From G963667425 sp963667425 [NCBI: bacterium] (lineage in GTDB: Bacteria > UBP6 > UBA1177), in NCBI GenBank assembly GCA_963667425.1, contig OY763407.1:2294001-2358000 (forward strand): a DNA stretch of 64,000 bases. Reading direction: 5' to 3'. The notes under the pieces are model-generated. The model had not been told where the DNA came from. It saw nothing but the letters and a program-made list of their open reading frames with translations, and ran no database searches. Below, one piece after another: positions 47,579-64,000 of the stretch (position 1 is the first letter of the stretch; each line of letters begins with the position of its first letter). The translations under genes were made by a program, and so were the position numbers.

Positions 47579-48265
47579 TTAAAGTTCAACTGTCGTTTCC
47601 TGAAGCATAAGGCTTACGCCATTGATTTCACTTATTTTTTTTAGGTCTGAGACAAGTTTTTCATTGGAACTGCTTTTTCTTATCTTTATGTGATATGCAT
47701 ATTCAAATTTTTTACCCTGACAGATCTCTTTTAATGTTATAAGTGCAAAAATTTTGCAGTGCTTTTTCATTATTAAAGCAATTTCTGCTGAAATGTGCTC
47801 GTTTTCAGTATCTATATTAAATCTTAAAATACCATCATAAAAAGAGCTTCTTGTCATTTGTGAAAAATATAAAAGAAAAGACGCTGACATAAAAATCAGT
47901 GTTCCAACCATTCCGGCGGCAAAAGCACCAACACCACAGGCTATTCCGCTTGCAAGAGATGCAAACATAAAAATAATATCTCTCGGATCCTTTAAATTTG
48001 TTCTAAACCTTATTATTGCAAGCGCACCAATCATTCCAAGTCCTCTTGCCAAACTGTCTCCGATAGAGTGCATAACTGTTGCAGCAACAATTGAACCCAG
48101 CATTATTGCCTGAACAAAATTTCTTGAATATGAAAGGCCTTTAAATGTTTTTACATATGTAAAACCTATTGCAAAAGAGAGAACAAATGAAAAAATTATA
48201 GCAAAAACCACATTAAGAAGAGATATTTTCTCAAGAGAGTTCTGCATAAAAAAAAGATCTATCAT
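47579..48265 (-). CDS. DUF4956 membrane protein
   Basis: A 228-residue protein with four or so membrane helices (about 18-125) and a soluble C-terminal domain. The block ARGLGMIGALAIIRFRTNLKDPRDI is the DUF4956 signature. In bacteria these proteins are genetically paired with VTC-domain polymerases, as here (the gap is 8 bases). The soluble end (about 145-225) resembles a regulatory alpha/beta fold. AGGAGG lies four or five bases upstream. Function is not established; a role in polymer translocation or control is inferred from the pairing. Confidence 0.82.
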   Translation of the reverse strand: MIDLFFMQNSLEKISLLNVVFAIIFSFVLSFAIGFTYVKTFKGLSYSRNFVQAIMLGSIVAATVMHSIGDSLARGLGMIGALAIIRFRTNLKDPRDIIFMFASLASGIACGVGAFAAGMVGTLIFMSASFLLYFSQMTRSSFYDGILRFNIDTENEHISAEIALIMKKHCKIFALITLKEICQGKKFEYAYHIKIRKSSSNEKLVSDLKKISEINGVSLMLQETTVEL

Positions 48266-48273
48266 TTTTCCTC

Positions 48274-49077
48274 CTATATATCAAAAAGATCGTTGTTACT
48301 GAATCCAAAGCGGTATTCTTTCATAACATTAAGAATTCCGTTCATATATTTTGAGAAACTTCCTCTAGTTAAATTAAATTCTCTTATAAGATCTATCATC
48401 CAGAAAGGAACATTGGAAGTGTAACATTTTAATTCAAGAATAGTATTGCACCCTTCTTCAAAAATTGTTTCCGCATCATAAGGCACCATTCTTGAATTAT
48501 CAGGTGTGACATTAAATGTGTTTTCTTCCATACACTTTAGCCCTATATCAAATGTCACTCTGGCATAGTCATCCATATCACTTATAAAAGCTTTTCTTTT
48601 GTATTGTGTAAGAATTTTAGGTTCTGCATTATATGAAATAACAAGAGATTTAAAAAAATCTATGTTTTTATTTTCTGAATTTTTTAAACCATGATTTTCT
48701 GTAGAACCAGCGTGAAAAAAATGATCTATAGATTCAGAACCGTAACAGAAACGTGATTTCTTTATTATCTCTCCGCTTTTTTGTTTTATCTCAAAGAAAT
48801 ATGGCGCTTTAGGTTTTTCGCCATAAGATCTGATTCTAATATTAAATCGATTTTCGCATCTTTCTATTCTGTTTTTTAAAAAAGTAAAAAAAGGGGTGTC
48901 AAAATAAAGATTATTTATCTGATAAAAAGAATCCTTCTCCTTTTCTGAATATTTATCAAGAGAACAGTATGGAAGAATAAAATCAGAAATAGGTTTAATC
49001 ATATCAAAAGGGATATGATATTTAAGCTCATATCTTTCAAGTATTGGTGGAATGGCTTTTTGAGAAGACCTTGACAT
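48274..49077 (-). CDS. VTC-domain polyphosphate polymerase-like protein
   Basis: A 267-residue VTC domain, related to the catalytic part of yeast Vtc4. Basic tunnel residues are kept: ERYELKY (Lys19), RIRSYG (Arg81, Arg83), EIKQK (96-100), KKSR (106-109), a later QYKRKAF and ARVTFD, and Glu in ILELKCYT. No membrane segment is present. It would polymerise nucleotide-derived phosphate into polyphosphate or act on another anionic polymer; activity is not proven for bacterial members. It sits between a TolC-like protein (4-base gap) and DUF4956 (8-base gap). Confidence 0.85.
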   Translation of the reverse strand: MSRSSQKAIPPILERYELKYHIPFDMIKPISDFILPYCSLDKYSEKEKDSFYQINNLYFDTPFFTFLKNRIERCENRFNIRIRSYGEKPKAPYFFEIKQKSGEIIKKSRFCYGSESIDHFFHAGSTENHGLKNSENKNIDFFKSLVISYNAEPKILTQYKRKAFISDMDDYARVTFDIGLKCMEENTFNVTPDNSRMVPYDAETIFEEGCNTILELKCYTSNVPFWMIDLIREFNLTRGSFSKYMNGILNVMKEYRFGFSNNDLFDI

Positions 49078-49081
49078 TTAA

Positions 49082-50314
49082 CTACCTTTTATTTGTCAGA
49101 TAATTTTGTTCAGGATCTTTTGATATAATTCCGCTCATTTCAATAAAAGCTATGTATCTATTGTATATATTGAAAGTTATTATTAGCTGCTTCATGTCAT
49201 CTGAAACAATATTTTCTTTAAGCTTGAGAATTGTAAGAGGATCCATTCCTTCTATTGATATATATTTATCAATAGATGAAGATAGGTCATATTTTTTTCT
49301 TCTCTCTTTTAAAAAATAATATTGTTCGCCAAGGCGTTTTATTGCATTTATATTTGAGATTAGTTTGTTTCTGTATCCGTTTTTTATATTCTGATATTCA
49401 ATTTTTCTTTCAATTAAAGTGGCTTCTTTTTTAAATAAAGATAATGTTTTGTCTTTTATAAGAGGTATATCAAGACCTATTTCAAGAGAAATTGATTTTT
49501 CAGGAAACGCATAGTCTTTTGAGTTGTAATTAATAGCAGCAAAATTTATAATTTTTTTTCTCTTTGCTTTTTCAAGTTCCAGAGATGCTTCCGCTGCAAT
49601 CATTTTATTTTCTTTGTAGTCAATATTTATATTTTCAATTTTGCTATCAAAATCAAACTTTTCTATTTCTGCTATTATTGACTCTACTTTTGCAATGTCT
49701 TTGATAAGAAAATTTACTTTTCCTATCCCACCATTCTGCTCTACAATTGTGCCTTCAAGTGCAGCTAAATTATTCTCTATTTTTATTATTTCAAGCTCTA
49801 TATCTGTTATTTTGTCTTCTGTTTCTAAAATCTCTCCCAAATGATTTTTGCTTGAAATAGAATCACTCTTTTTTAAAACAGCTACTTTGTCATCCATTAT
49901 TTCTTTAAGTTTTAATAACAAAGTTAAACGACTTTTAAATTCAAGATATTCAAGTACAGTATAATATCTTTCAAGAACTACTTTATTCTGCTCCATTATA
50001 TATTCAAATTTTGAATTTTGCTTAATATTGCCAATAAGTATTTTTTTATTATAAGATTCTCCCCAGCCTCTAAAATAGAATCTAAGAGAATACTTTTCTC
50101 TGAAAAAATCAAATTCATCTGTTTCTGTTCGAAATTCTACTTCATTTAAAAAAGGGGTATCTTCATCTTTTTTCTCCAGAGCTTTTACAATTTCTTTTTT
50201 TCCTTCAACTCTATAATCGTATTTAAATCCTGACACATAGCTTTCAATAGTGATTTCTTCTGAAAGCAAAATAGAAAGATTTAACAATAAAAGCAGTGTG
50301 AAAATCTTTTTCAT
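49082..50314 (-). CDS. TolC/OEP-like outer-membrane efflux protein
   Basis: A 410-residue exported protein. A signal peptide (about 1-18) is followed by mostly long coiled-coil helices (about 105-250 and 290-350) with a strand-rich segment (ISLEIGLDIPL, near 275) between them. A closing YNRYIAFIEMSGII resembles TolC-type ends. Sequence-level similarity is weak, so the call rests on architecture and on the HlyD adaptor immediately upstream, with a one-base overlap (TAATG). Would form the outer channel of a tripartite exporter. No inner-membrane ABC or MFS pump is seen in this operon. Confidence 0.6.
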   Translation of the reverse strand: MKKIFTLLLLLNLSILLSEEITIESYVSGFKYDYRVEGKKEIVKALEKKDEDTPFLNEVEFRTETDEFDFFREKYSLRFYFRGWGESYNKKILIGNIKQNSKFEYIMEQNKVVLERYYTVLEYLEFKSRLTLLLKLKEIMDDKVAVLKKSDSISSKNHLGEILETEDKITDIELEIIKIENNLAALEGTIVEQNGGIGKVNFLIKDIAKVESIIAEIEKFDFDSKIENINIDYKENKMIAAEASLELEKAKRKKIINFAAINYNSKDYAFPEKSISLEIGLDIPLIKDKTLSLFKKEATLIERKIEYQNIKNGYRNKLISNINAIKRLGEQYYFLKERRKKYDLSSSIDKYISIEGMDPLTILKLKENIVSDDMKQLIITFNIYNRYIAFIEMSGIISKDPEQNYLTNKR

Positions 50315-52227
50315 TAAATGTCAAGCTCCATAAATTTTGAATTAAGCTCTTTTCCTTCGTCGAAAAATATAAAAAAACTATTCTTGTCTTTAGCTATTCC
50401 TTCAGGCTTTAAATTGTCAAAACGTCTGATAAGATCTGCTTTAAGATTTTTTATTCGATAAAATGAGCCACTTTTTTCCTTTTTAGAAGATGTAGTAATG
50501 TAAAGCACTCCATTATCGTTATATATATCTGAAACTCTTTCATTCTGTGGTATATTTTCCAATGTCAGTATTTCAGTTTCATTTTGATCAAGAGGTTTTT
50601 CGTTTATAATTTTCTCAATGTTTTTTATGACTAAGATGACAGGTTTTTCATTATATTTTGGCGTTTTAAAAGCAATCAGCAGGGTGTTCTCTTTTATTGT
50701 CATTCCTTCTATGTCAAGGCTCTTTTTATTAATTGCTTTTGAAATAAATTCGTTTAATGGGCTGGGAGCAATATTTGCAATATTCTGCAATAATTTAAGA
50801 AAATCGATCTTTTTTTCTAAAACAAAATAACTGTTATCTCTTTTTATTAAAGCAAGTATTTTACGTTCTTCTTTTAGGTTTAGTTTTTTAGAAAAATTTA
50901 GAGAAGATAAAATAAAAATTCTATTTTCGTCAAATTTTACAATAGACTCCAAATCATTTATTTTGTCTAAACCTTTAATCTCTGCTTCTGAATTTACATT
51001 TCCGATTTTGTTTATATAGAAAAGAACAGGCTTTTTCTTTTCCGTGTCATCTGATATAACCAGAAAACAATCTTTTTCCTTATCATATACAGCTCCGGAG
51101 GCTTCTATTCCTTTCTGATTAATTATTCGGACAGGTTTATTTACTTCAATAGCGTTTAGCTCATTTTCAGCAATAGATTTTCCAATTGTTTCAGCAATAT
51201 TTCTCATGGGATTCTTTTTGTAGTAGATAAAAACTTTTTCTCCTAATATAAGCTTGTTCGTTTCAGGTATTTTTACCGTTATTTCTCTTCCCCAAAGCTG
51301 AAAATCAGGTCTTTTTAACAGTCTGACAGGGTAGGGGACAATTCTGTTGCCTAAACCCACAATCAACCCCTTTATGTTTTTTTCTCTATCAGAAGAAACA
51401 ACAGTTACTTCATCATTAAGAGAAATTTCGGAATACAGTGACTCATGAATATATCCTTTAACGAAAGAAGGTCTCTTCTGTAAAATGGATAGTATGGGTG
51501 TAAAAGGTGCAATTTTTTCTCCTCCTCTGAAATAAACATTACCAATAATTCCCTGAAAAGGCGCATATATTGCCAGACTGTTATTTTTGCTTTCAAGCAT
51601 CTGGAGCTCATCTTTAAGATTTTCTATTTTTAATTTTATAGGAGTATCACCGTTTTTTAGAATTTCATTGTATATTGTCAGTGTAGTTCCGGCTTCTCTT
51701 TTTTTATCCTTTATTTCCTGTTCTAAAGCTTCAATTTCAAGAACCATTGGGCTTTTAAGTTCAGATTTGTCTTTTTTATTTAATTTGAAACTTTTTAAAC
51801 CAGATGAAAGTTCTTTATTTATTCTAAGCTGATTCTCTATGGATTTTATTTTTGAACCAATTTCATTTAATGAGGCTTGAAGTGCAATTTTTGTTTGAAG
51901 CATTTTTGAATTTATTTCGACCTTATCAAGTCCTTTTTCAGATTCAAGTTGAAGAAGTTGATTGTTAATATCTGAAATTCTTAAAACAAGCTCAGGATTA
52001 ACAAGTTCTGCTAATTTTTCTCCTTTTTCAACATGTTGTCCTTCTACAACAAGAATTTTTTTTATTTCAACGGAACTTTCTGAATTAATTATAGTTTCAC
52101 TTGACTCCGCCATTCCCTGAAACTGTGTCGCTTCTGAATTTGCATAAGAGTTTATAATAAAAAGCAGAACAATAAGAATTATTATGAATATATAAAGAAG
52201 CTTGGTTCCTGTTACTTTATCCGGCAT
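50314..52227 (-). CDS. HlyD-type membrane-fusion protein fused to DUF3616-like propeller
   Basis: A 637-residue single-pass protein. One N-terminal membrane helix (about 9-28), then an HlyD adaptor: lipoyl half-domains (about 40-75 and 225-260, with the APFQGIIG strand), a coiled-coil hairpin (80-220) and a beta-barrel domain to about 355. The C-terminal 270 residues resemble a DUF3616/SdiA-regulated-type beta-propeller, with SGAVYDKE, DDTEKK, a DLES motif, DIEGMT and PEGIAKDKN. I know of no HlyD with this tail. It should link the inner membrane to the TolC-like protein downstream. The 119-base spacer upstream separates it from the Cys-rich gene and may hold its own promoter. Confidence 0.7.
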   Translation of the reverse strand: MPDKVTGTKLLYIFIIILIVLLFIINSYANSEATQFQGMAESSETIINSESSVEIKKILVVEGQHVEKGEKLAELVNPELVLRISDINNQLLQLESEKGLDKVEINSKMLQTKIALQASLNEIGSKIKSIENQLRINKELSSGLKSFKLNKKDKSELKSPMVLEIEALEQEIKDKKREAGTTLTIYNEILKNGDTPIKLKIENLKDELQMLESKNNSLAIYAPFQGIIGNVYFRGGEKIAPFTPILSILQKRPSFVKGYIHESLYSEISLNDEVTVVSSDREKNIKGLIVGLGNRIVPYPVRLLKRPDFQLWGREITVKIPETNKLILGEKVFIYYKKNPMRNIAETIGKSIAENELNAIEVNKPVRIINQKGIEASGAVYDKEKDCFLVISDDTEKKKPVLFYINKIGNVNSEAEIKGLDKINDLESIVKFDENRIFILSSLNFSKKLNLKEERKILALIKRDNSYFVLEKKIDFLKLLQNIANIAPSPLNEFISKAINKKSLDIEGMTIKENTLLIAFKTPKYNEKPVILVIKNIEKIINEKPLDQNETEILTLENIPQNERVSDIYNDNGVLYITTSSKKEKSGSFYRIKNLKADLIRRFDNLKPEGIAKDKNSFFIFFDEGKELNSKFMELDI

Positions 52228-52346: not shown

Positions 52347-55334
52347 TCAGAAAATAAGATTGCAGCCGCACCCTTCAGCTTTGTCGCATGGAGTACCGAA
52401 ACACTTTTCATTACATGATGGATTGCTGTATTCACATTCAGATGAAATTTGTTTTGAATATATTGGTAGTCCAAAAGGTGTTGAAGAAGATGATGTTCTA
52501 ACACCTCCTGTAGGTATGTAAAAAATAAGACTGTAATTGTCCGGCACTTTAGTTTTTACTGTAATAATGAAATTTTTACTTTCATTTTGCAGAAGAATTT
52601 CCGATATTTTATTAAAAGTAACGGTGTCTGTTTTTTCAAATGATTCTATAATCTGAAGCTGTTTATCATTTTCGTCAACAATATTATTCTTATTAGTATC
52701 AAGATACAGCGATATTTTTGTTATATTTTCTCCATAAATACCATGGTTTTCAGATGTTACAAGGCTTAAATCAATATCTTTAAGTGTGGTCTCTTCATTT
52801 TTTGAGATTATGGAAAAAGACAAAATTTCATATTCTCCACTCAGATTTTCGGGAACAGGAGGCTGATTATCTGTCTTGGTTACAAATAATAGTTTTGAAG
52901 ATTCAGGAATAACAGTGAAAGATTCAAATATTAGTTCATTTTCTATATCAACGCTGTTTGAAACTTCATCATCAATTCTTATGCCTGTCCGGCCTGCAAT
53001 AAAAGGGGTAAAAACAAATGGATCAGGTCCTGTTTCAGCGGATGTCCGAAAATTTGCCAAAACGAGAAAGTAAATCATTTCATTTGTAGGGAAAGTTTTA
53101 TTTATTGCGAATTCAACGCTTCCTCCTATAAGATAGGGGGCAGTTGATATTATTTCTTCATTTTCATCAGCGAGTCCATTTCCATTTTTATCATATATCA
53201 GACGAAAATCTGAAATATGTTCTCTGAGATCTTCTGTGCCTGTTTTAAAATCAAGAAAAACAGAATAAAAATAAAAAGCAGGGTTCATTTCTGTTTTTGC
53301 TTCAGGAGCTATGGCTATCTGAGCAAGAAGCAGGTTGTCTCTGTTTTCGTTAAGATATATAGGATTTCCATTGTTTGACGGACTGTTTTTTCCTTTTTTT
53401 ATATGAAGCACAAGATCTCTTTCGAGACATTCGTCTCCTTCACAGTTTGGCTTGTATACACAGATATTGTCAAGACAGACTTCTCCTGAAGAACAGTGAG
53501 TATCTTCTGTACATTCGACAGAGATACAGAATCCATCTTTGCAGGCTTTTTTTTCCGGGCATTCTTCTGAAGATTCACATTCAGGTTCATCAAGTCTTCC
53601 GCATATTTCCATATCAGGATTTCTGCATATTGAAAGTTCCGGACAGTTTGGATCCATTGTAATTTTTAATGGTACATTTGTGTTTGTTCTGTAAATGGCG
53701 GAATCTTCTTCAATTGATGCGGCAGCTGTAATAAATTCTCCTTTATCCCACGCTGAAACGCCATCAGGTCTGTCAACTTTAAAGCGTATTACAGCCGTGT
53801 CGCAGGTGGTTTTTGCTGATTCCGTGCATGGTTTCATTTCAAATGGAAGTAAATAGCCTTCTTCCAGAGGAAATTCTTTGTCTGTTTCTTCAATTTTTTT
53901 CCATTCTGTAATTTTTCCATTTGTTCTATATTTTATTTCTGTACTTCCTGAGATGTATTTTTCCTGTGACAGAAGTTCTTTTTTTACTAAAATGTTTTTT
54001 GCTGTCTTTTCTCCCCAGTTCTGAATTTTTATTGTGTAGTAAAATGCTCTTTCCATACATACTTTAAATGGATCCTCTGAGCAGCTGCATATATTAAGTT
54101 CTCTTTCTTCAGGAATATCAAAATCTGCGGCTCTTGTATCTACACTTAAAACAAGAAGATTTGTTAATATGACATCCTGATTCGCACTGACTTTGAGGTC
54201 CAGATCTGTATCTCCTTCCTTTAGGTGTCCTTTGCAGTTTTCATTTGAAACAAGAAAAGTGTCCACATCCATGGCATACTGAATTGTTTCTGTGTTAACT
54301 TCTGCTGAATTTCCTCCTATTCCCCCGAGACAGAATGGTTTTGTGTTGTCATCATCATCCCAGTAATATCTGCTGGAAATGGAGTTGTATATTTCCGTAT
54401 AACTTCCCTTATCGGGATTGCATCTGTTTGACAGAGTTTGCCATTCGAGGTTGGGATCGCCTCTGAAGAAAAGGTTTTCCATGTATGTTCCTGGAATTAC
54501 ATTGTCGGGATCTCCTTCAAAGACCATCAATGTTAGTTTAGCATAAGGATTTTCAGGAAAAATGAAATCTGTAACATTTATTTCGGCTTCATTATGCCAG
54601 AAAAGGTCTGTACCGTTATATATATAAATGTTTTTAGGTCGCATTTTTTCATCTGCCGAGGAATAAACAAGAAGTATCGCCCACCCTGAAACCATTGTCG
54701 AACTTAGCATGTAAGTTTTGTCTTCTGTGCATTCAAGGTTTGAAACAGTGTATGTTCCTGCTATAAAGTCTGATAAATTCTCAAACCCAAGGTTGCTTCC
54801 CTGTTCATAGATTTTTTTAAAAAAATAGGTGATATCCATTCTATAGGTAAAATATGCGATATTATCCTGAGAAATTATCTTTTTCACACTTTCATATTTA
54901 AAACTGTCAGGGTCTCCAAGATAATGTGGATCACCTTCTATTTTTTCAGAAAATTCCATAGAGCTGTATAATGTGTTTTTAAATTTCAGAGTTATATTAT
55001 TATCAACCTGATCGGCAAATTTTGATGGATCTACGGCGCTTGTCCATATAATAAATGCTCTTTCAATATACGCATCTGTTGGAAAATATTTTGATGATAG
55101 TTTGTAGCTGCTTGAAGATTTGCAGTTGTCCGCCTGCGGGTTTCCTGAAGAATCATTTATGGAGTCTTTATTTGATAAAAGAGATTTAAACAAAACAAAG
55201 TAATCCATATTATATTGTTCCCACTTAAGTTCTTCGCCGTCATATGTGGAAACGTTTGGACCCAGAAGAGATGCTCCATTTATCGTAACAGTAATTAAAA
55301 GAATAAGTACTGCTGTAACATCTCTTACTGACAA
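52347..55334 (-). CDS. Large Cys-rich secreted surface protein
   Basis: A 995-residue exported protein. The start is TTG (55332-55334) with AAGGAG eight bases upstream. A signal peptide (about 1-21) leads to about 380 residues of unknown strand-rich sequence, a DUF11-like region (about 400-590), then a short Cys block with EDTHCSSGEVC and ECSSEEC-type repeats near 600-660. A later region has two Asp-rich EF-hand-like calcium loops, DKNGNGLADENE (about 745) and DTNKNNIVDEND (about 905). The end is Cys-rich. It lies 5 bases after the C-terminal protease. Function unknown; cell-surface adhesion or structure is possible. Confidence 0.7.
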   Translation of the reverse strand: MSVRDVTAVLILLITVTINGASLLGPNVSTYDGEELKWEQYNMDYFVLFKSLLSNKDSINDSSGNPQADNCKSSSSYKLSSKYFPTDAYIERAFIIWTSAVDPSKFADQVDNNITLKFKNTLYSSMEFSEKIEGDPHYLGDPDSFKYESVKKIISQDNIAYFTYRMDITYFFKKIYEQGSNLGFENLSDFIAGTYTVSNLECTEDKTYMLSSTMVSGWAILLVYSSADEKMRPKNIYIYNGTDLFWHNEAEINVTDFIFPENPYAKLTLMVFEGDPDNVIPGTYMENLFFRGDPNLEWQTLSNRCNPDKGSYTEIYNSISSRYYWDDDDNTKPFCLGGIGGNSAEVNTETIQYAMDVDTFLVSNENCKGHLKEGDTDLDLKVSANQDVILTNLLVLSVDTRAADFDIPEERELNICSCSEDPFKVCMERAFYYTIKIQNWGEKTAKNILVKKELLSQEKYISGSTEIKYRTNGKITEWKKIEETDKEFPLEEGYLLPFEMKPCTESAKTTCDTAVIRFKVDRPDGVSAWDKGEFITAAASIEEDSAIYRTNTNVPLKITMDPNCPELSICRNPDMEICGRLDEPECESSEECPEKKACKDGFCISVECTEDTHCSSGEVCLDNICVYKPNCEGDECLERDLVLHIKKGKNSPSNNGNPIYLNENRDNLLLAQIAIAPEAKTEMNPAFYFYSVFLDFKTGTEDLREHISDFRLIYDKNGNGLADENEEIISTAPYLIGGSVEFAINKTFPTNEMIYFLVLANFRTSAETGPDPFVFTPFIAGRTGIRIDDEVSNSVDIENELIFESFTVIPESSKLLFVTKTDNQPPVPENLSGEYEILSFSIISKNEETTLKDIDLSLVTSENHGIYGENITKISLYLDTNKNNIVDENDKQLQIIESFEKTDTVTFNKISEILLQNESKNFIITVKTKVPDNYSLIFYIPTGGVRTSSSSTPFGLPIYSKQISSECEYSNPSCNEKCFGTPCDKAEGCGCNLIF

Positions 55335-55339
55335 GTTTT

Positions 55340-58270
55340 TTACTCCTTGTTATTTTCGCCTTTTGTGTAGAAAAAGTATTTGATTTCCGAATTTCTTTTT
55401 TCTTCGTCACTGCTTTTGGAAATAACAGTGATTCGATTTGACTTTTCCGTAAAGGAAAGGGGAACTTCTATTTTTATTGTTCCATTCGGCTGTTTTTGAA
55501 ATTCATTCGGATCTGTCAGTCTTGCATAATATATTTTTTTGTCGTTCATAAAGACAAGCACATCTTTTGTCTCTTCTGAAACTTCAAAAGTTATCATTCC
55601 ATCTTTTGAATCTGTTATGACAGGGTTTTCATCAACAATTATTTGAGGCATATGAACGTCATACTGTATATTAAGTGTGAACGCTTTTTCTTTTTCACTT
55701 TTTTCCACAGCTGCTATATTGGAGTTCTTTACCCACAAACCGTTATTTATTCTGTAGTATTCGCCGCATTTTCCATCAGTTTTTGTTGTAAATGGATTTG
55801 AGACTGATGCTACAATTGTTTTTGCCGCTGCGGTTTTGTAGAGAGGTGTTTTGCTGTTTATTGATATTTCTTTTTCCGCATTTTCAAAAATGCAGCCTTT
55901 AAATTGTGAAACAGGAAGCGAAAATCCTGCTGAAAAACGGGTTTTGAAATCATAAACAGAGAGTACAAGTTTAATTTTTTTATCACTTTCAGCATTTGAA
56001 GAAATTTTGAATTCAAAATCGAATTCTTTTTCTTCACCCGATTTCATTTTGATAGATTCGCTTCCTTTTTTGATGAAAACAGCATTACTTGATGTTGTGT
56101 TAAGTATCATTATTCTTCCGTCGTAGATTTCTCCTTTTCCTTCATTTTTAAGCCAGATATGAAGTTTCACATCTTCGTTTTCTTCAAGGATTCCATTTTT
56201 GTTGCCTGAAACTTCTTCTATTGTGTAATTCATTGTTGTTTCAGGCATTTCTACGTTTTTAACTTCAAAAATGAATTCTTTGGACAAAAGTTCCTTACCT
56301 GTTCCGTTTTGAAAGAAACGAACAGTTACAGGTTCTTTTCTCCATGATGCATTTTCTGTTATTTTTACAGGAACATCTCTTACAACGTTTTTATCAAAAG
56401 CACCGAAAATAATCTCTTCATTTTTTAGAGAAGGAATTTCTGTATCAAGGTAAGCTGTAATATTTTCTATCTTTTCAGGATATGAAAGTTTAAATTTAAG
56501 ATGATTCTCCTTACCGGCTTCCAGTATTTTAGGAGATATTAGTTCAACTGTCAGCTTTTCAGGGTCGATATCTTTTACAGATGTCCTTTCATCCCAGTTT
56601 ATTTCAAGTTGCTTTAATTTTTCAGAGATGGTTTTCCATTCCTCATCTTCAATTATTTTTGATGTTGCAGTTAAGGATGAATCTGATTCTTTTGTTTCTG
56701 TAGCTTTTTTAATAAGTCGCAGAGTCAGCTCTATTTCTTCATCTGATATGAATTCATTGACTTTTCTTTTTCTCCTTTCTTTTATCAGTTCTTCCATTTC
56801 CTTGTATTCTTTAAAAAACCTTATTGTTTCAAGCGGTTTTTCTATTTCTTTAGGTGCAAATTTACTTTCTATATGTTCTGCAAGATCTTTTTCTTTGCGC
56901 ATAAAGGAATCAGTTTTAAATATAGATATTTTTCTTTTGTCAATGTATACAGGAAGGTATTCTATATTTGGGGAAACTCCAACTGATTGAATTGAAATAT
57001 TTCCAGGGGTCAGGTACTGATCTATTGTCAGTTTCAGTCCTCCACCTGAAGGAATTCTGAAAAGATTCTGAACAGATCCTTTTCCAAATGTTTTACGTCC
57101 TACAACTGTTGCTCTGCCATTGTTTTTGAGTGCGGCAGTAACAATTTCCGCTGCAGAAGCACTTCCTTCATTTGTCATTACTATAATAGGAGTATCTGTT
57201 ATGTCTTCTGTTTGTTCTTTTGCTTCAGTTGTTTCTATTGCGTCTCCTCCAAATCCATTGACTGTCGCTACAATAACTCCTTTGCTTAAGAATCTGTCTG
57301 AAACTTTAATTGCCTGAGATAAAAGACCTCCAGGATTATTTCTGAGATCAAGAATAATATAGGAAAGTCCTTTTTTCTGAAGTTCTTTAAGAGCCGCATC
57401 CATTTGAGAGTATGTGTTTTCCTGAAATCCGGTAAGTTTTATATATCCAACTCCCAGAGCAGGCATTGCCGAAATAACTGACTTAACTTTTATAATAGCT
57501 CGTACAAGATCCATTTTTATTAGATCTGGAACGCCTTCTCTTTTTACATAAATTGTTATTTTTGTTCCAGGGTCTCCTCTCATTCTGTCAACAGCTTTGT
57601 TGAGCGTCATGTTGATAGCACTTTCATCATCTATCTGTACTATTATATCGCCTGCTTCAACACCTGCTTTTTCTGCCGGAGTTCCTGCCATTGGACTTAC
57701 AACTGCAATTTCTCCATCATCATTCATAGATATTACTATTCCGAGTCCTCCGAAATTTCCTTCTGTGGATGATGTGAAATCATTGAATTCTTCAGGTGTG
57801 AATATATATGAATGAGGATCAAGTTTGTGAAGCATGCCATTAATGGCTGCATATTCCACATCACTGAGTTTTCCGTCATCTTTAGGTATGTAGTTTTCTT
57901 CTATTTTGCTGTAAACCTGACGCAGAACTATTCCCACGTCCCATATGTCTTTAAGTCGCTGAACTGGAATTGTGAATTTTTTATTGTAGATCTGAAGTCG
58001 TACATTTTTATCTGTTTCATTATATGATGCAACTATTTCAGGAAATCCATCCTGAAGAGCATCAAGAGAACCAATCAGAAGATCTGATGGCTGAAGCTTT
58101 GATTTGTTGAGATATCTTGTTTTTACAGCATTGATTGTAAACAATGTTGTCTCAGCTTTTGAAATGGAAAAATCTTCATCTGTTCTGTTAAACTGATCAA
58201 AAATTCCAGCTTCGAGTAATGTGGCTACAAAAACAATAAATAGAAAAGCAATAAAGACCTTTTTGCGCAT
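55340..58270 (-). CDS. S41 C-terminal processing peptidase with long C-terminal extension
   Basis: About 976 residues. A signal/membrane anchor (about 1-22) precedes a conserved N-terminal region, a PDZ domain (about 170-255) and an S41 protease with the catalytic Ser in NEGSASAAEI (about 370) and Lys in TFGKGSVQ (about 397). After about residue 440 there is an extension of more than 500 residues, including CARDB-like beta-sandwich segments (GNKNGILEENEDVKLHI near 700). CtpA proteins are typically 400-550 residues. ATG 58270 is used, supported by GAGGAG seven bases upstream; an in-frame TTG at 58306 is weaker. The Cys-rich gene 5 bases downstream may be a substrate. Confidence 0.85.
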   Translation of the reverse strand: MRKKVFIAFLFIVFVATLLEAGIFDQFNRTDEDFSISKAETTLFTINAVKTRYLNKSKLQPSDLLIGSLDALQDGFPEIVASYNETDKNVRLQIYNKKFTIPVQRLKDIWDVGIVLRQVYSKIEENYIPKDDGKLSDVEYAAINGMLHKLDPHSYIFTPEEFNDFTSSTEGNFGGLGIVISMNDDGEIAVVSPMAGTPAEKAGVEAGDIIVQIDDESAINMTLNKAVDRMRGDPGTKITIYVKREGVPDLIKMDLVRAIIKVKSVISAMPALGVGYIKLTGFQENTYSQMDAALKELQKKGLSYIILDLRNNPGGLLSQAIKVSDRFLSKGVIVATVNGFGGDAIETTEAKEQTEDITDTPIIVMTNEGSASAAEIVTAALKNNGRATVVGRKTFGKGSVQNLFRIPSGGGLKLTIDQYLTPGNISIQSVGVSPNIEYLPVYIDKRKISIFKTDSFMRKEKDLAEHIESKFAPKEIEKPLETIRFFKEYKEMEELIKERRKRKVNEFISDEEIELTLRLIKKATETKESDSSLTATSKIIEDEEWKTISEKLKQLEINWDERTSVKDIDPEKLTVELISPKILEAGKENHLKFKLSYPEKIENITAYLDTEIPSLKNEEIIFGAFDKNVVRDVPVKITENASWRKEPVTVRFFQNGTGKELLSKEFIFEVKNVEMPETTMNYTIEEVSGNKNGILEENEDVKLHIWLKNEGKGEIYDGRIMILNTTSSNAVFIKKGSESIKMKSGEEKEFDFEFKISSNAESDKKIKLVLSVYDFKTRFSAGFSLPVSQFKGCIFENAEKEISINSKTPLYKTAAAKTIVASVSNPFTTKTDGKCGEYYRINNGLWVKNSNIAAVEKSEKEKAFTLNIQYDVHMPQIIVDENPVITDSKDGMITFEVSEETKDVLVFMNDKKIYYARLTDPNEFQKQPNGTIKIEVPLSFTEKSNRITVISKSSDEEKRNSEIKYFFYTKGENNKE

Positions 58271-58317
58271 TTTATTTCTCCTCTCAAGGGATATTTCGTG
58301 TTCCAATTAAAAACTCC

Positions 58318-58959
58318 TCAAAGTGCAATACCAAAAACCTTATTAAAAAGAAATTCTATTCTTCCAATAAGTATGGACATTCTCGACATGACAGTATATC
58401 CAAAAGCTGTTCCAAGAGCAATCATGATATAGATCATTCCTATATTTCCAGCATTTTTTACAAAAAAATTGCTTTTATACGTTCTTAGGAAATTGAGCAG
58501 AACGGTTACAACTCCTACATAAACGATGATATTGTTAACAGATGTTGCCCAGTCAATATTCCCTGTTTCTGTAAAAACTACAAATCCGAATATATTTGAA
58601 CTTATCTGAAGAATAATATATGAACGGAGATAGTATATAAAATTTACTCCGGCGTATATTCCTACAGCAAATGCTATGGGTATTTTTGATATCCATCTGG
58701 TTTTCTGATTAAAGGAGAGGAAAAGTGAAAGTCCGAGAAAAAGAGGGACAAGATAGATCAGCTCGCCCCTTAAAAGCGGTTCAAAAAGTTTCGGTATAAG
58801 AATATCATAAAGCCATAATGAGAAAAAATATCCTGCAGAAACACCTATAAAAAGTGCCTCTGCAAATTTATAAAAAATGTTGTCTCTAAAAAGTATACTG
58901 AAAACAGAAACTGTTAAAAAAGCTCCTATCCAAATATTTATATCCGTAGAGATATTCAT
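58318..58959 (-). CDS. Integral membrane protein of the MutL-like/DUF6754 cluster (213 residues)
   Basis: A 213-residue protein with about six membrane helices and short loops. It ends TVMSRMSILIGRIEFL, a block I recall from a membrane protein in Chloroflexota neighbourhoods with DUF6754. LIYLVPLFLGLSLFLS and FIGVSAGYFF also match that memory. No catalytic motif is visible. It overlaps the next upstream gene by 4 bases and is followed by the protease gene 48 bases downstream. The function is unknown. Confidence 0.65.
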   Translation of the reverse strand: MNISTDINIWIGAFLTVSVFSILFRDNIFYKFAEALFIGVSAGYFFSLWLYDILIPKLFEPLLRGELIYLVPLFLGLSLFLSFNQKTRWISKIPIAFAVGIYAGVNFIYYLRSYIILQISSNIFGFVVFTETGNIDWATSVNNIIVYVGVVTVLLNFLRTYKSNFFVKNAGNIGMIYIMIALGTAFGYTVMSRMSILIGRIEFLFNKVFGIAL

Positions 58960-59813
58960 TTTTTTCTTTTTCCTAAAAAAAATATTACGTTCGTAAGCAC
59001 AATAAGTGCTATCAGCAGAACATGAACAGCAACCTGAACACGCATTGTTTTAACAGCTTTATGTTCTTTTTCAGGAAGTTTTAGCAAAAGTTCATAGTCG
59101 GCTGCGCCTTTTAATCCGGCAAGAAATGCATCAATTTGTTTGGACTGAACAAAAGGATATACATTGGCAACGATTGATGCAGTTGTTCCTGCTAGAACTT
59201 TCGTTGTCAGACCTCTCCCTTTTACAAATTCTTTATAAACAACAGGAATATATATCGCATCGATAAATCCTGAAGAGAAATCTATGATTGAATTTACGTT
59301 CATAATGTCAGGATTTAGTGTTATAATTTCCATTTCTGATGTTTTATGTCCGTAAAAATCTTTTGGAAATGTCATTTGAAAATCTGCCATAAAAGATTCA
59401 ACAGCAATAATTCCGCCTGTTATATAACCAAGATTTACATAATCTTTTCCGTAAATTAATCCCTTTTCTCCTGAAGCTCCGTTTTTTATATTCTTTTCAA
59501 CAACTTTGTGAATAATGCCGGGGCCTTCGGGTGTAAGAGAGACAAAAATCATTTTTATGTTTCTGGCCATACATTGTTTTACAGAAGCTTCAAGCATTGG
59601 ATCCAGCTCTGTGTTTGATGAAAAATCGTACTCTACGGAGAAAAGAACTGTTGATTCAGGAGGGATTGATGATATTTTTTCATAAAACTGATGTGAAAGC
59701 TTACTTGGTGCAATTGTAACATCTATTTTCATTATTTCGGCAACAACTATCACTGTAAGCAGAAGAATATATAGATGGATTGGTTTTATTTCCAGTTTAG
59801 GTTTATTTTCCAT
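58956..59813 (-). CDS. Membrane protein with large extracytoplasmic domain (about 285 residues)
   Basis: A protein with one N-terminal membrane helix, an alpha/beta extracytoplasmic region (about 40-250) and a final helix near the C-terminus. The central domain contains VLFSVEYDF, IFVSLTPEGPGI and YGKDYVNLGYITGGIIAV, reminiscent of sugar- or nucleotide-binding Rossmann-like folds but not identifiable. I favour ATG 59813 (GGAG six bases upstream) over ATG 59825, which would overlap the preceding gene by 23 bases. Part of the DUF6754-like run. Confidence 0.6.
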   Translation of the reverse strand: MENKPKLEIKPIHLYILLLTVIVVAEIMKIDVTIAPSKLSHQFYEKISSIPPESTVLFSVEYDFSSNTELDPMLEASVKQCMARNIKMIFVSLTPEGPGIIHKVVEKNIKNGASGEKGLIYGKDYVNLGYITGGIIAVESFMADFQMTFPKDFYGHKTSEMEIITLNPDIMNVNSIIDFSSGFIDAIYIPVVYKEFVKGRGLTTKVLAGTTASIVANVYPFVQSKQIDAFLAGLKGAADYELLLKLPEKEHKAVKTMRVQVAVHVLLIALIVLTNVIFFLGKRKK

Positions 59814-60903
59814 CATCTTCTCCATCGTAAGGACGTTCTATTCCAAGTAAAAGTTTTAAGGAATAAAAACAGATACCTAAACCGGTTGATATAAGAATTG
59901 CTCTTTGTGCAGACATGTTTGGTACAAAAAGAAGCCAGTCAAGAAGTGCACTGAACTGAAGTTCTTTAATTTCTGCTGTATCTGCAACTATTTTTCCAAA
60001 AGAAATATGCCCTAAAAGAACAATTGTTGCAGAAATGACAAAAACAGTTGCAAAACTGTTTTTAAGCCGGAATGATTTAAAGATGATAGCTATTATAGAA
60101 AATGCAAGAAGTGCAAAAAAAGCTGTGGAAAGTGGTTTGTAAAAAACATCAAAAATCCATGTAAGACTCTGTTTCCTGTCTGTTTTTCTTATAGATAAAT
60201 CCTGTTTTATAAGAGTTCTGATCCTGATTTCAGCCGTATTGCTAAATCCATATAAAGAAACAGATTTTCTAATTTTTGTGTTTTCTATTACAGAATAAGC
60301 GATGTCCTGTGAAAAATTATCAATTCTAAGTGAAAATTCTTTAATATTCTTTGCATCTTTTCTAAAAACAGAATTTTCCATAAGTTTAGGATCAAGCTTT
60401 GAATCATCATTAAAAAAAGAAAGATACTGCTGAAGTGTAAAACCACTTTCTTTTAATTCTTTTTCTTCAGGAATGTAATAAGGAGCAATATCTTTCGATA
60501 TTAACAGAGTAAGTTTTTCTTTAGCCGGATGAAAAGAAAAATAAGGGTCATTGGAAATTGCTTCTGCAACAATTTTTCTTACCAGTTCAGGTTTTCCTGC
60601 AAAATAGTTTGCAGAGTTAAAAATAGTTCTGTTCCAGTTTATGAAGCCTGCCGAAACTGTTATAAAAAAGGAAATAATAATAACAAGAGAATATATTTTG
60701 CCGTTTCCATTTTCACTTTTTAATCTTTTAAGATTTTTATGCAGAAGATTAAATACTCCAAGCATAAGAGCAAAAACTGATATAAGTATTACCCAATTTC
60801 TCAGTATTTCAGCATATTTATCAAAAAAAGATGTGAAAGACTGCATAACAAAGAAAAAACCTAAACTGACAGCTGTAAATAGGGGAAGATATTTCTTTAT
60901 CAC
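59803..60903 (-). CDS. Membrane protein of the MutL-like/DUF6754 cluster (366 residues)
   Basis: A 366-residue protein with about three N-terminal membrane helices, an extracytoplasmic region (about 110-240) and four C-terminal helices. The last block KPLSTAFFALLAFSII...ILLGHISFGKI and the end LLGIERPY agree with the LGIERSY-type ending I recall from Chloroflexota homologues. The start is GTG at 60901-60903, with GGTGGA upstream and a 4-base overlap with the previous stop (GTGA). Function unknown. Confidence 0.62.
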   Translation of the reverse strand: MIKKYLPLFTAVSLGFFFVMQSFTSFFDKYAEILRNWVILISVFALMLGVFNLLHKNLKRLKSENGNGKIYSLVIIISFFITVSAGFINWNRTIFNSANYFAGKPELVRKIVAEAISNDPYFSFHPAKEKLTLLISKDIAPYYIPEEKELKESGFTLQQYLSFFNDDSKLDPKLMENSVFRKDAKNIKEFSLRIDNFSQDIAYSVIENTKIRKSVSLYGFSNTAEIRIRTLIKQDLSIRKTDRKQSLTWIFDVFYKPLSTAFFALLAFSIIAIIFKSFRLKNSFATVFVISATIVLLGHISFGKIVADTAEIKELQFSALLDWLLFVPNMSAQRAILISTGLGICFYSLKLLLGIERPYDGEDDGK

Positions 60904-61595
60904 GATTCCACCATATTTGCTATTGTTATTACAACACCTGAAATAACAATGAAAAGTATTATGAGAATTTTTACAATATCTGATGCCAGAATTGCCGCTT
61001 TTTCATAAATATTTTCTGATAATGCTGCCGGTAAATTAAACATGTCCTCTCCCATAACAGTTACGTTTGTTGATGTTATGAAAAATGGAAGCTGATCATT
61101 ATTTGCAGTACCTGCAAACTGAAAGGTTTTATCAAGAGATGCCGATTCACTCATAAGAAATGATTCTGCACCAAAGAGTCCCATATAAATAACAGTTTGA
61201 AGCTTTTCTCTTTTTATTTTACCGGAAACATATGCCGCAAGAGCAAAAGGTTCCATTGAAATATAATCAGCATTTACGAGTGCTTCATCAAGCACTTTAA
61301 ACATAAATGGAGAGCCTGATACAGCGGAAACTTCAATTCCGTATTCTTTTGAAAGCTTTATTATTTTCTTAAGAAATGAAATACTCACCATGGACTGTGG
61401 ATCGGTGATCTCCCCTGTTCCTGGAACATAAAGCAGCGTTCCTCCTGTTTCTGAAAGCAGATATATGATTTTTTTCAGATTTTCCACTCTATCCATATCG
61501 AGATCTATGAGTATTGATAAATTTCTTTTTATAATGTAAACCGCCAGAGTATAGCTTATTATAAGTGTTGCAAGAAGAAGCATTTCAAGAAACAT
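60900..61595 (-). CDS. DUF6754-like membrane protein
   Basis: A 231-residue protein with an N-terminal and a C-terminal membrane helix and a soluble domain between them. The segments GGTLLYVPGTGEI, YISMEPFALAAYVSGKI, MGLFGAESFLMSE, QLPFFITSTN and MGEDMFNLPAALSE match the pattern I remember for DUF6754 (the usual GEELFAAGAYLS becomes GEDMFNLPAALS). No enzymatic residues can be assigned. It overlaps both neighbours (1 and 4 bases). The family call is from memory, without a search. Confidence 0.6.
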   Translation of the reverse strand: MFLEMLLLATLIISYTLAVYIIKRNLSILIDLDMDRVENLKKIIYLLSETGGTLLYVPGTGEITDPQSMVSISFLKKIIKLSKEYGIEVSAVSGSPFMFKVLDEALVNADYISMEPFALAAYVSGKIKREKLQTVIYMGLFGAESFLMSESASLDKTFQFAGTANNDQLPFFITSTNVTVMGEDMFNLPAALSENIYEKAAILASDIVKILIILFIVISGVVITIANMVES

Positions 61596-63238
61596 TAGTT
61601 TTCCTCTCTACATCTCATATCCATGACAAGACCACATAAAGATGGATCAAGCCTTACTTCATTATTCCACTCCGGCTTCATGAAAAAGCTTTTTTCTGAA
61701 GTATATATTTCTATTTCATCTTTTTTAAGAGAAAACAGTTGTGCATATTCATCATTTCTTATTCTTATGTTGAAAATGGAGTCTTTTCCGGTCTTTTTAG
61801 TGACAGGAGCAAAAACATATCCCATATTTGCGAGAAAGGCATCTCCTGTTGCAGAATAATTTGAAGCTTTTGTTTTTGCCATGACTGGCGCTACAGCACT
61901 TAAGGCAGACTCTCTATCCCAAAGAATTTTTGTAAAACCTGAAGGAAAAAAACTATCTATCAACGTGAGAATTATTTGCCTTTCTGAACCATTAGCGAGA
62001 AGAGGATGTCTTCCCGTCAGAATAATTGTATCAATTTCTTTTGATGTAGGGCTTTTTCTGGTTCCTCTTACCTGAAAAGCTGTTGAAGGAAGCCTTGGCT
62101 GCTCTGTATCTCTTATTGAATCGACATATTTTATATGTTCATTGACAACCGTTGTTATAAAAACTTTGAGCATTGAAAAAGCTTCTGCCTTATCTGCCGA
62201 GGTATATGCTGAGAAGCTGCTTTTTACAATTCTTGAAGCTGTCATAGTAAGTTCTTCATCCGAAGCATTTGAAGAAAAATAACGTCTCATTAAAGATATC
62301 GTATCTTCTTCTATTTTGCCATTTGTGTTGAATATAGTGTCAGAGTATCTTGCAAAAAGCGAATATTTTCTGACTTCTTCATTTTTTGGTTTGTAAAAGG
62401 ATGAAATATAAGCTCCATCTTTGTCCAGTTTTATAACTTTCAGATGTTTAAGTTTCTTTTCATAAAAGAAGCCTTCAATAAAAGAGGTTATAACAGATAC
62501 ATCGGAAAGAAAAGGAGCGTTTTCCTTCCATAAAGTTTTCCCTTCTGATATTTTTTTCAAAAGAAGAGAAGATACGATGGACTTTATTCCTTTTATACAA
62601 CCTTTGAAATTAAGTTCTTTAAAAGATGGAAGAATGTTCTCTTCAAAAAAAACTTCTGCTTTTCTTGATGAAAAAATGTTTTTTATAAGTGGCACATTTT
62701 CGCTGTTACCTACGTAAAGAACTTTTGGGTTCAGGTTCTTATCTTCATTAAAAATGTATAAGTTGCAGAAATTTTCTGATAAATTTATTATATGCGATGA
62801 GTTCGTGTTTTCAAATCCACCTGAAACTATGAGCATGTCATCATTTTTATTTTTCTTAATTGTTTTTTCATAAACCTCTTTTGATGTATATGCTGACGAA
62901 AGAGTCAGTCCTATGTCAAGAGCAGCTTTTTTTATGCTGTTCAATGAAAAAATAGTTGAACCAAGAAGAGATGCTTTGATAAAATCGCCATACGCTACAA
63001 CAGTAACAACATCTTTTTTTTCATCAATAAAAAGATTTTTATCCAGATAAGAGTCTCCGGTTCTCAATGATACAGTTTTTAAAGCTTCTCTTATAAGTTC
63101 GGCAGAAAAATTGGTACTGTCAATAGTGAAAACTATCTTGAAATCAATAACGTTTTTATCTCCTTCTTTTATCAGATGAAAAATTTCAAGAGTTCTTAAA
63201 GAAATATAGATAACAAGGAATTTGTCTTTCTGCTGCAA
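61595..63238 (-). CDS. Divergent MutL/GlmL-like ASKHA-fold protein
   Basis: A 547-residue soluble protein. The start is TTG (63236-63238) with GGAG seven bases upstream. The C-terminal third holds IILTGRHPLLANGSERQI, SGFTKILWDRESALSAVAPV, GDAFLANMGYVFAPVTKK and GLVMDMRCREEN. These parallel the conserved end of glutamate-mutase-L-like ATPase proteins (GlmL/MutL) found in Chloroflexota. The N-terminus lacks a clear phosphate-binding loop, so ATPase activity is doubtful. It probably is a cytoplasmic partner of the membrane proteins encoded downstream. Overlaps the DUF6754-like gene by one base. Confidence 0.55.
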   Translation of the reverse strand: MQQKDKFLVIYISLRTLEIFHLIKEGDKNVIDFKIVFTIDSTNFSAELIREALKTVSLRTGDSYLDKNLFIDEKKDVVTVVAYGDFIKASLLGSTIFSLNSIKKAALDIGLTLSSAYTSKEVYEKTIKKNKNDDMLIVSGGFENTNSSHIINLSENFCNLYIFNEDKNLNPKVLYVGNSENVPLIKNIFSSRKAEVFFEENILPSFKELNFKGCIKGIKSIVSSLLLKKISEGKTLWKENAPFLSDVSVITSFIEGFFYEKKLKHLKVIKLDKDGAYISSFYKPKNEEVRKYSLFARYSDTIFNTNGKIEEDTISLMRRYFSSNASDEELTMTASRIVKSSFSAYTSADKAEAFSMLKVFITTVVNEHIKYVDSIRDTEQPRLPSTAFQVRGTRKSPTSKEIDTIILTGRHPLLANGSERQIILTLIDSFFPSGFTKILWDRESALSAVAPVMAKTKASNYSATGDAFLANMGYVFAPVTKKTGKDSIFNIRIRNDEYAQLFSLKKDEIEIYTSEKSFFMKPEWNNEVRLDPSLCGLVMDMRCREEN

Positions 63239-63239
63239 C

Positions 63240-63488
63240 TTATTTCTCCATTTCTTTTAGAAAAAAAGAGAAGTTTTCCTCTTTTGCAAATATAGTTTGC
63301 AATTTGCTGATGTTACTTTTCCGGAAAAAAATGGAGAGAAGCGGTTCTGATATATCAAACAATGATTGGAATGCTGAAAAAGGGAAAAAGATAGTTCCCA
63401 TAAAAGATGTTACTGGTTGTGCAAAAGTTTTGGAGTTCAAATTTTTTGCAATTTCTTTTATTATATTTTCGTCATCTTTTGTTATCAT
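63240..63488 (-). CDS. Small protein of unknown function (82 residues)
   Basis: A short reading frame between the PilZ gene (4-base ATGA overlap) and the MutL-like gene (1-base gap). It is mostly helical, with a hydrophobic FMGTIFFPFSAFQSLFD centre, and no Cys. The overlaps at both ends argue that it is real and translated. Nothing similar is recognised. Confidence 0.55.
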   Translation of the reverse strand: MITKDDENIIKEIAKNLNSKTFAQPVTSFMGTIFFPFSAFQSLFDISEPLLSIFFRKSNISKLQTIFAKEENFSFFLKEMEK

Positions 63489-63892
63489 AGGTCTGTGTCA
63501 AAGAAGAGCGGTTCTTTCTTTTTTAGAAATTTATCGATAATTACTTTATCTTTTTCTGATAAATTGACGAACTGAAGTCCCATCCCAGGTTCAATACTGG
63601 CATCTGAAGAGGAATCTTCACTTCTTATCCATGCCACTTTTGCAACAAATTCAATCGTTTCATTTTCAAGTTTCATATTTATTTTAAATTCGGTACCTAT
63701 GTCAAAAGTTTGTCTTGTCGCAATAAAGAGACCGCCATTACTTATGTTTTCAGTAAAACCGTTAAAAAAGTTATGTGGACCCGTTAATGTTACTTCAAGT
63801 TCAGCATCAATTCTGGGTGCACGTCTCTGATTATTAGAAAAGATAACATCATCTTTTTGTCTCTGTTGAAGATCCAGATTTGAATCTTTCAT
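63485..63892 (-). CDS. PilZ-domain protein
   Basis: About 135 residues. The PilZ c-di-GMP site is visible: the Arg-rich RRAPR (about 23-27) and NISNGGLF (D/N-x-S-x-x-G). The rest fits the TIGR02266-type PilZ of Myxococcus-like bacteria. ATG 63892 is supported by GGAGG five bases upstream, rather than the GTG at 63904. It opens the overlapping operon leading to the MutL-like and DUF6754-like genes, hinting at c-di-GMP control. c-di-GMP binding is inferred from the residues only. Confidence 0.82.
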   Translation of the reverse strand: MKDSNLDLQQRQKDDVIFSNNQRRAPRIDAELEVTLTGPHNFFNGFTENISNGGLFIATRQTFDIGTEFKINMKLENETIEFVAKVAWIRSEDSSSDASIEPGMGLQFVNLSEKDKVIIDKFLKKKEPLFFDTDL

Positions 63893-63908: not shown

Positions 63909-64000
63909 CTACTGTTCTATATTAAATTCAACTCTTCTATTTTTTGCCTGACCACTTTTTGTTCTGTTGGATGCAATAGGTTTATCCGGTCCATAGCCTA
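63909..64000 (-). CDS. OmpA-family C-terminal domain (partial)
   Basis: The right edge cuts this gene. The last 30 residues are visible and contain GPDKPIASN and NRRVEFNIEQ before the stop, the typical end of an OmpA peptidoglycan-binding domain. Only 16 bases separate its stop from the PilZ start, so it could be co-transcribed with the downstream cluster. Confidence 0.75.
   Translation of the reverse strand, partial: GYGPDKPIASNRTKSGQAKNRRVEFNIEQ

What the first reader, a model, noticed from the sequence alone, without database searches (positions are those of the whole stretch)
58318..63892. PilZ-led operon of MutL-like, DUF6754-like and membrane proteins of unknown function
Seven overlapping genes include a divergent MutL/GlmL-like protein, a DUF6754-like protein, two polytopic membrane proteins and one with a large outer domain. 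I recall a comparable set in Chloroflexota, but know no function for it. Its attachment to a c-di-GMP-type PilZ gene and to a C-terminal protease and a Cys-rich surface protein suggests a surface assembly or secretion machine under second-messenger control.
Basis: partly seen in the sequence, partly recalled or inferred. Interest (0 to 1): 0.8.

Follow-up and report, generated by a model that had tools for sequence, protein, structure and literature searches.

The report
Divergent MutL–DUF6754 membrane protein module
A block of five neighbouring genes, kept in the same order in very distant bacteria, probably makes a membrane complex of unknown job; here its enzyme-like part seems to have lost its catalytic residues and the block sits inside a cell-surface operon.

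Summary
The operon is real. Five genes (MutL-like, DUF6754, membrane proteins P3, P4, P5) overlap or abut on the minus strand. The same five, in the same order, lie in MAGs of an Acidobacteriota-type phylum (27-36% identity for the four membrane proteins). Profiles of these five, built only from those MAGs, each rank their window partner first of 969 frames (E 5e-5 to 2e-42). In 396 genomes of that phylum DUF6754 and P4 ring in the same 5; P5's only strong hits are those 5 (four are close relatives).

The module's MutL is a clade apart from glutamate-mutase GlmL; the window copy is a very long branch of it without intact ATPase motifs, so probably a pseudo-ATPase scaffold. PilZ is not core: no PilZ was found in four genomes with the module. 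An envelope export/assembly machine is plausible but unproven (about 0.3). Single-sequence structure models failed; paper searches for three family names found nothing.

The parts
63909..63998 (-). last 29 codons plus stop of an OmpA-type peptidoglycan-binding protein (gene runs beyond the window)
   Evidence: translation; PDB OmpA-family protein E 1.2e-6; YiaD/OmpA lipoprotein model E 3e-8; Pfam gave no hit on so short a piece
63485..63892 (-). PilZ domain protein (TIGR02266 type), 135 aa, with RRAPR and NISNGG (RxxxR and [D/N]xSxxG motifs, rule recalled)
   Evidence: sequence, start
63240..63488 (-). 82-aa protein; possible counterpart of the small protein (113-135 aa) that precedes MutL in the other genomes (unproven)
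   Evidence: same position; profile aligns residues 8-80 of the frame to 30-102 but E 1.3, third of 969 frames; 116 of 1000 shuffles reach its pairwise score
61595..63238 (-). MutL/GlmL-related ASKHA-type protein, 547 aa, ATP-binding motifs not intact
   Evidence: E 5e-5, best of 969 frames; motifs; tree
60900..61595 (-). DUF6754 protein, 231 aa: TM, domain predicted cytosolic, TM
   Evidence: E 9e-34; E 1.3e-31
59803..60903 (-). P3, polytopic membrane protein, 366 aa, with about 140 residues more than its 228-aa relatives, between the segments that align to their TM3 and TM4
   Evidence: (E 2.5e-34)
58956..59825 (-). P4, TM - about 225-residue domain, predicted outside - TM, 289 aa
   Evidence: (E 2.7e-38)
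58318..58959 (-). P5, polytopic membrane protein, 213 aa
   Evidence: (E 1.6e-42)
55340..58306 (-). long S41 C-terminal processing protease with PDZ (MXAN_5808/TIGR03900-like); same unit by distance, not part of the conserved module
   Evidence: (TIGR03900 647.9 bits, cut-off 660.95)
52347..55334 (-). Cys-rich exported protein, 995 aa; last gene of the tight unit (119 bases to the next gene)

Best explanation
Shown: genes 58318-63238 are a divergent copy of a conserved five-gene set, MutL-DUF6754-P3-P4-P5, that also exists, with intact MutL motifs and one extra 374-aa protein, in MAGs of another phylum. Inferred mechanism: P3 and P5 form a membrane core; DUF6754 puts its domain on the cytosolic side, P4 (and the insert in P3) put domains outside. 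The MutL-like protein docks on the cytosolic side. Elsewhere it would hydrolyse ATP and drive or reset the complex; in the window organism it would act as a scaffold, as the GspL cytoplasmic domain is thought to do in type II secretion (recalled). In this organism the complex is tied to an OmpA-type peptidoglycan anchor, a PilZ switch, a processing protease and a Cys-rich exported protein, so it most likely serves export or assembly of an envelope/surface component, switched by c-di-GMP here but not in general.
For: Synteny and homology of the five genes. DUF6754 and P4 ring in the same 5 of 396 genomes, P5 strongly in the same 5. Module MutL is a separate clade that takes in the window protein (support 0.995) and has no GlmE/GlmS in 5 of 5 fetched stretches, while 11 of 12 other MutL stretches have both. 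GlmE family rings in 0 of 6 genomes with module genes. Motif change: DCGSTTTK aligns to TIDSTNFS, DIGGATTD to DKDGAYIS. Envelope setting in the window: OmpA tail, S41, exported Cys-rich protein in one tight unit.
Against: The window's S41, PilZ and Cys-rich proteins have no relative in nine stretches around module genes elsewhere (the OmpA tail could not be tested that way, its window control failed), so they may be mere neighbours. Four of the five positive genomes are close relatives, so co-occurrence is not five independent events. No secretion ATPase, pilin or secretin matched in the unit. No structure: both single-sequence models are poor (mean pLDDT 42.7 and 38.4). The motif loss rests on one sequence and an alignment of 18% identity, and part of the second motif (D..GA) is kept. 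The window's place in the tree is on a branch of 3.2, where long-branch error is possible. Topology is from hydropathy and K/R counts. That the five proteins form one complex is inferred.
Confidence: 0.33

Rival explanations
1. The module is a membrane transporter or channel for a small molecule or ion, gated or reset by the MutL-type ATPase; the surface genes in the window are only operon neighbours.
For: Two polytopic proteins with conserved charged residues (P5: DN..YK.AE); in G051 the flanking proteins that were scanned are metabolic enzymes or unknowns; no S41, PilZ or Cys-rich relative near module genes elsewhere.
Against: No credible match to a transporter family in Pfam or NCBIfam for window or G051 proteins (weakest-level hits only, such as CrcB E 0.22 and an acyltransferase E 0.022 for P3); two large conserved non-TM domains; tight coupling to envelope genes in the window.
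Confidence: 0.3
2. The module is a sensing or signalling complex: P4 outside senses, DUF6754 and MutL relay inside, PilZ adds c-di-GMP input.
For: Sided domain layout and a PilZ with both c-di-GMP motifs in the operon.
Against: No known output domain; no PilZ match in 4 genomes that have the module.
Confidence: 0.17
3. The MutL-like protein is a GlmL-type reactivase for a B12-dependent mutase, and the membrane genes are incidental.
For: PF13941 / GlmL family match.
Against: No GlmE/GlmS in 5 fetched module MutL stretches or in the 64-kb window, against 11 of 12 other MutL stretches (two of the five are only about 6 kb long); PF06368 in 0 of 6 genomes with module genes; separate clade; motifs not intact in the window copy.
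Confidence: 0.03
4. A membrane quality-control complex that feeds or regulates the S41 protease.
For: S41 gene 11 bases downstream with an SD-like GGAG in the gap.
Against: No S41 relative in nine stretches around module genes elsewhere.
Confidence: 0.12

Closest known systems
MutL/GlmL family (PF13941; glutamate mutase accessory ATPase)
   Same: Homologous over about 340 residues; module copies in G051 and G153 keep DCGSTTTK and DIGGATTD
   Different: Module clade is separate, has no mutase genes nearby, lies with membrane genes; the window copy's motifs are not intact
DUF6754 (PF20539)
   Same: Window protein scores 117 bits against a cut-off of 27
   Different: Shorter than the 406-aa G051 form, lacking its exported N-terminal region; the domain's function is unknown in any case
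GspL / PilM of type II secretion and type IV pili (recalled; one search listing seen, no paper read)
   Same: Actin-like-fold cytosolic protein attached to an inner-membrane platform; in GspL the fold serves without ATPase activity (recalled)
   Different: No sequence link found; no secretion ATPase, pilin or secretin match in the unit; P3/P5 are polytopic
MXAN_5808-family S41 peptidase (TIGR03900)
   Same: Matches model positions 12-967 of 973
   Different: 647.9 bits, just under the cut-off of 660.95; not part of the conserved module

Membership tests
MutL/GlmL (PF13941) | family profile match | tested here: met
   E 1.2e-10, 41.2 bits, cut-off 27, but only residues 103-235
MutL/GlmL (PF13941) | ASKHA phosphate motifs | tested here: not met
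   DCGSTTTK aligns to TIDSTNFS, DIGGATTD to DKDGAYIS; both intact in G051, G153 and the parts of G157 and G158 aligned there
GlmL proper (mutase accessory) | gene near GlmS/GlmE | tested here: not met
   none in the window or 5 module MutL stretches; 11 of 12 other stretches have both
DUF6754 | PF20539 over cut-off | tested here: met
   117.1 bits vs 27
MutL-DUF6754 module (defined here) | MutL, DUF6754, P3, P4, P5 in this order, same strand | tested here: met
MutL-DUF6754 module (defined here) | 374-aa protein between MutL and DUF6754 | tested here: not met
   no frame in the window matches (best E 1.2, none)
MutL-DUF6754 module (defined here) | small protein upstream of MutL | tested here: inconclusive
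   82-aa frame, E 1.3; 116 of 1000 shuffles reach its pairwise score
c-di-GMP-binding PilZ | RxxxR and [D/N]xSxxG motifs (recalled rule) | tested here: met
   RRAPR, NISNGG read in the sequence; binding itself not testable here
Type II secretion / type IV pilus platform | assembly ATPase, pilin-like proteins, GspL/PilM match | tested here: inconclusive
   no such match for the operon proteins; the rest of the genome is not held
TIGR03900 S41 peptidase | curated score 660.95 | tested here: not met
   647.9 bits, close to it

The most novel reading that the evidence does not exclude
A previously undescribed class of envelope machine: a branch of an ATPase family known for rescuing B12 enzymes was recruited to a four-protein inner-membrane complex, and in one lineage the motor became a catalytically dead scaffold while the complex was wired to a c-di-GMP switch, a peptidoglycan anchor, a processing protease and its cargo.
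Probability: 0.25. Interest if true: 0.85.

Novelty: new variant of a known kind. Interest (0 to 1): 0.58.

Why it matters
A GlmL-related protein is tied to the same membrane proteins in two distant groups, and of those four partners the libraries searched here name only DUF6754, without a function. That makes a clean genetic and structural target: gene order kept at about 30% identity suggests that the five proteins work together. The window copy, with its altered motifs, is a natural experiment on whether ATP hydrolysis is needed at all. The 'known kind' in the novelty section is the conserved but uncharacterised DUF6754 gene set, not a system of known function.

Tried and rejected
Direct scan of genome contigs with the window DUF6754: 92 pattern matches, none confirmed; the window's own genome is not held. 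Four scans of viral contigs with two DUF6754, one P5 and one P4 alignment: no relative confirmed. tblastn: window DUF6754 in plasmids, G051 DUF6754 in plasmids and phages, G293 P5 in plasmids: none. PDB by sequence for DUF6754, P4, P5, MutL and the 374-aa protein: best E 0.019, judged chance; P3 and the 82-aa protein were not searched there. AlphaFold2 on single window sequences of DUF6754 and P4: mean pLDDT 42.7 and 38.4, so no fold search was run. DUF6754 against P4 and P3 against P5 by hhalign: no relation. Defence systems (PADLOC): nothing credible, best E 0.026. Ornithine aminomutase family: rang nowhere, so uninformative.

My first count linked MutL to the module too strongly (5 of 38 genomes); the larger sample shows MutL over the cut-off in 22 of 396 (40 at E up to 0.001), 17 of them not of the module. 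I fetched 12 of those 17: 11 have GlmE and GlmS in the stretch, one (L060, a 6-kb contig) has neither. G188, G196, G219, G241 and G263 were not fetched. The 82-aa protein looked like the small protein of the other genomes by eye but failed the test. G153 looked MutL-only, but its contig ends just after MutL and carries the start of the 374-aa gene (E 4e-26), so it very likely has the module. Four weak P5 matches (E 4e-4 to 7e-4): one of the four was read (G088) and looks like NADH dehydrogenase subunit L by eye. A local search for an OmpA-like tail near module genes is void, because its control in the window failed (frames under 40 residues were left out).
Full report
What is there. The window's last 6 kb hold a run of minus-strand genes whose ends overlap or nearly touch: PilZ, an 82-aa protein, a MutL-like protein, DUF6754, and three membrane proteins here called P3 (366 aa), P4 (289 aa) and P5 (213 aa). 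Family scans name only PilZ, MutL (one stretch) and DUF6754. The unit is longer than the finding says. Upstream of PilZ, 16 bases away, the window ends inside a gene whose last 29 residues, GYGPDKPIASNRTKSGQAKNRRVEFNIEQ, match OmpA-family peptidoglycan-binding domains (28 PDB sequences at E up to 0.1, best 1.2e-6; NCBIfam YiaD-type model 3e-8; Pfam gave no hit on so short a piece). Downstream, 11 bases after P5, starts a 988-aa S41 protease close to the MXAN_5808 family, and 5 bases later a 995-aa Cys-rich exported protein; the next gene is 119 bases away.

Is the gene set conserved? The window DUF6754 is too divergent for the direct genome scan. PF20539 rang in 0 of 1 (that MAG), 2 of 149 genomes of the phylum, 4 of 18 of the order of a positive genome, 5 of 396 of the phylum and 1 of 41 of a class; these samples overlap. 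The five are G025, G051, G157, G158 and G293. Around the hit in G051 the order is small protein (135 aa), MutL (615 aa), a 374-aa protein, DUF6754 (406 aa with an exported N-terminal region), P3 (228 aa), P4 (286 aa), P5 (301 aa). The set is complete on one contig in G051 and G025 and split by contig ends in G157 and G158, where the G158 MutL frame is also broken. G293 has P3, P4 and P5 behind DUF6754 at one copy and a second, truncated copy; no MutL match was found in G293. G153 has MutL, the small protein and the start of the 374-aa gene at a contig end.

Homology test. Profiles built only from those genomes were run against all 969 stop-to-stop frames of 30 or more codons in the window. The best frame was the expected one for DUF6754 (1.3e-31), P3 (2.5e-34), P4 (2.7e-38), P5 (1.6e-42) and MutL (5.4e-5). 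The small-protein profile put the 82-aa frame third at E 1.3, and the 374-aa profile found nothing better than E 1.2. Pairwise scores against 200 shuffles agree: the five expected pairs have z from 14.9 to 45.8; the next best of the 42 pairs is MutL against DUF6754 at 3.0 (1 of 200 shuffles reaches it). Identities to G051 are 29% (DUF6754), 30% (P4), 35% (P3), 36% (P5) and 18% for MutL.

Co-occurrence. In the 396-genome sample P4 rings in exactly the five DUF6754 genomes. P5 rings strongly in the same five; four more genomes match weakly (E 4e-4 to 7e-4), and the one of the four that I read looks like NADH dehydrogenase subunit L, so a membrane-segment cross-match. G051, G025, G157 and G158 are close relatives of one order, so these are not five independent events.

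The MutL question. MutL by itself is wider: 22 of 396 over the cut-off. Of the 17 that are not of the module I fetched 12; 11 have GlmE and GlmS genes in the stretch, one short contig has neither. The five module MutL stretches and the window have neither, and the GlmE family rings in 0 of 6 genomes with module genes; one control genome rings, below the family's cut-off. A FastTree tree of 16 sequences puts the window protein with the module MutLs (support 0.995) on a branch of 3.2 substitutions per site, so long-branch error cannot be excluded. The module copies keep DCGSTTTK and VDIGGATTD; in the window these align to TIDSTNFS and LDKDGAYIS. The reading frame is intact and overlaps its neighbour, so I read it as a pseudo-ATPase rather than a decaying gene. 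The N-terminal part is poorly aligned, and one sequence cannot show that the loss is general.

Topology. Hydropathy gives DUF6754 one TM at each end and P4 one TM at each end; P3 has five segments in the window and six in G051, P5 five in the window and four in G051. In G051 the DUF6754 protein begins with a hydrophobic segment like a signal peptide, and the region after its second segment has the most K/R, so its domain should be cytosolic. P4 of the window has four K/R in its first 19 and four in its last 6 residues, so its domain is more likely outside. P3 of the window carries about 140 extra residues. The exported N-terminal region of G051 DUF6754 looks like fibronectin type III by eye; Pfam gave no hit.

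What PilZ tells. The window PilZ has both c-di-GMP motifs. But G051, G025, G157 and G158 gave no PilZ match, while G153 (13 matches), G293 (7) and 5 of 14 control genomes did. The assemblies may be incomplete, but four misses in a row make PilZ unlikely to be core; c-di-GMP control is at most a local addition. The same holds for S41 and the Cys-rich protein: neither has a relative at E up to 1 in nine stretches around module genes, while the window control finds each. Eight flanking proteins of the G051 copy and one of G293 scanned against Pfam are metabolic enzymes or unknowns.

How it may work. Shown: a conserved, co-occurring, syntenic five-gene set with one ASKHA-type protein and four membrane proteins. 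Inferred: one inner-membrane complex with domains on both sides, ATP-driven in its ordinary form and scaffolded by a dead ATPase here. Inferred more weakly: export or assembly of an envelope component, from the OmpA, S41 and Cys-rich neighbours. A transporter reading is nearly as likely.

Known or not. Full-text searches for DUF6754, PF20539 and PF13941 gave 0 papers, 'glutamate mutase L' with Chloroflexi 0, four glutamate-mutase/MutL phrases one listing that looks unrelated, and TIGR03900 with two more terms one listing. I saw listings and abstract starts only; no paper was opened, and the library lacks most subscription papers. The lineage of the window is unknown; matches to TIGR02266 (over its cut-off) and to TIGR03900 and TIGR04201 (both below theirs) hint at a deltaproteobacterial or myxococcal relative, at 28-39% GC per 2-kb block.

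Noticed in passing
window 47579-52227, minus strand: A second tight unit: HlyD-like adaptor (637 aa), a 410-aa outer-membrane-efflux-like protein (by eye, no Pfam hit), a VTC-domain protein and a DUF4956/MgtC-like protein. A paper search for DUF4956 together with VTC domain found none.
   Followed up: partly
window 28898-29953, 29963-31060, 31959-32969, plus strand: Three similar polytopic proteins with a shared C-terminal stretch (LPP[TS]...E[RK][VI]P.IEK[KR]F.SW.ILNL), the third separated from the others by a pdxJ-like gene on the other strand (pdxJ by eye).
   Followed up: no
window 12565-14169, minus strand: Cys-rich lipoprotein-like protein with many repeats, similar in style to the Cys-rich part of the 995-aa protein at 52347-55334 (by eye; no NCBIfam match).
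   Followed up: no
window 44355-47576, plus strand: Protein kinase domain fused to a TM and WD40-like repeats (by eye).
   Followed up: no
window 41959-43422, minus strand: A 487-aa ThyX that matches the 211-position ThyX model in two stretches, perhaps a duplicated-domain form.
   Followed up: no
L012 (G293:C249) 1-2268: A second, truncated copy of the DUF6754-P3-P4 genes in one genome, at 45% identity to G051 in the DUF6754 region, with a divergent gene upstream where MutL would be expected.
   Followed up: partly
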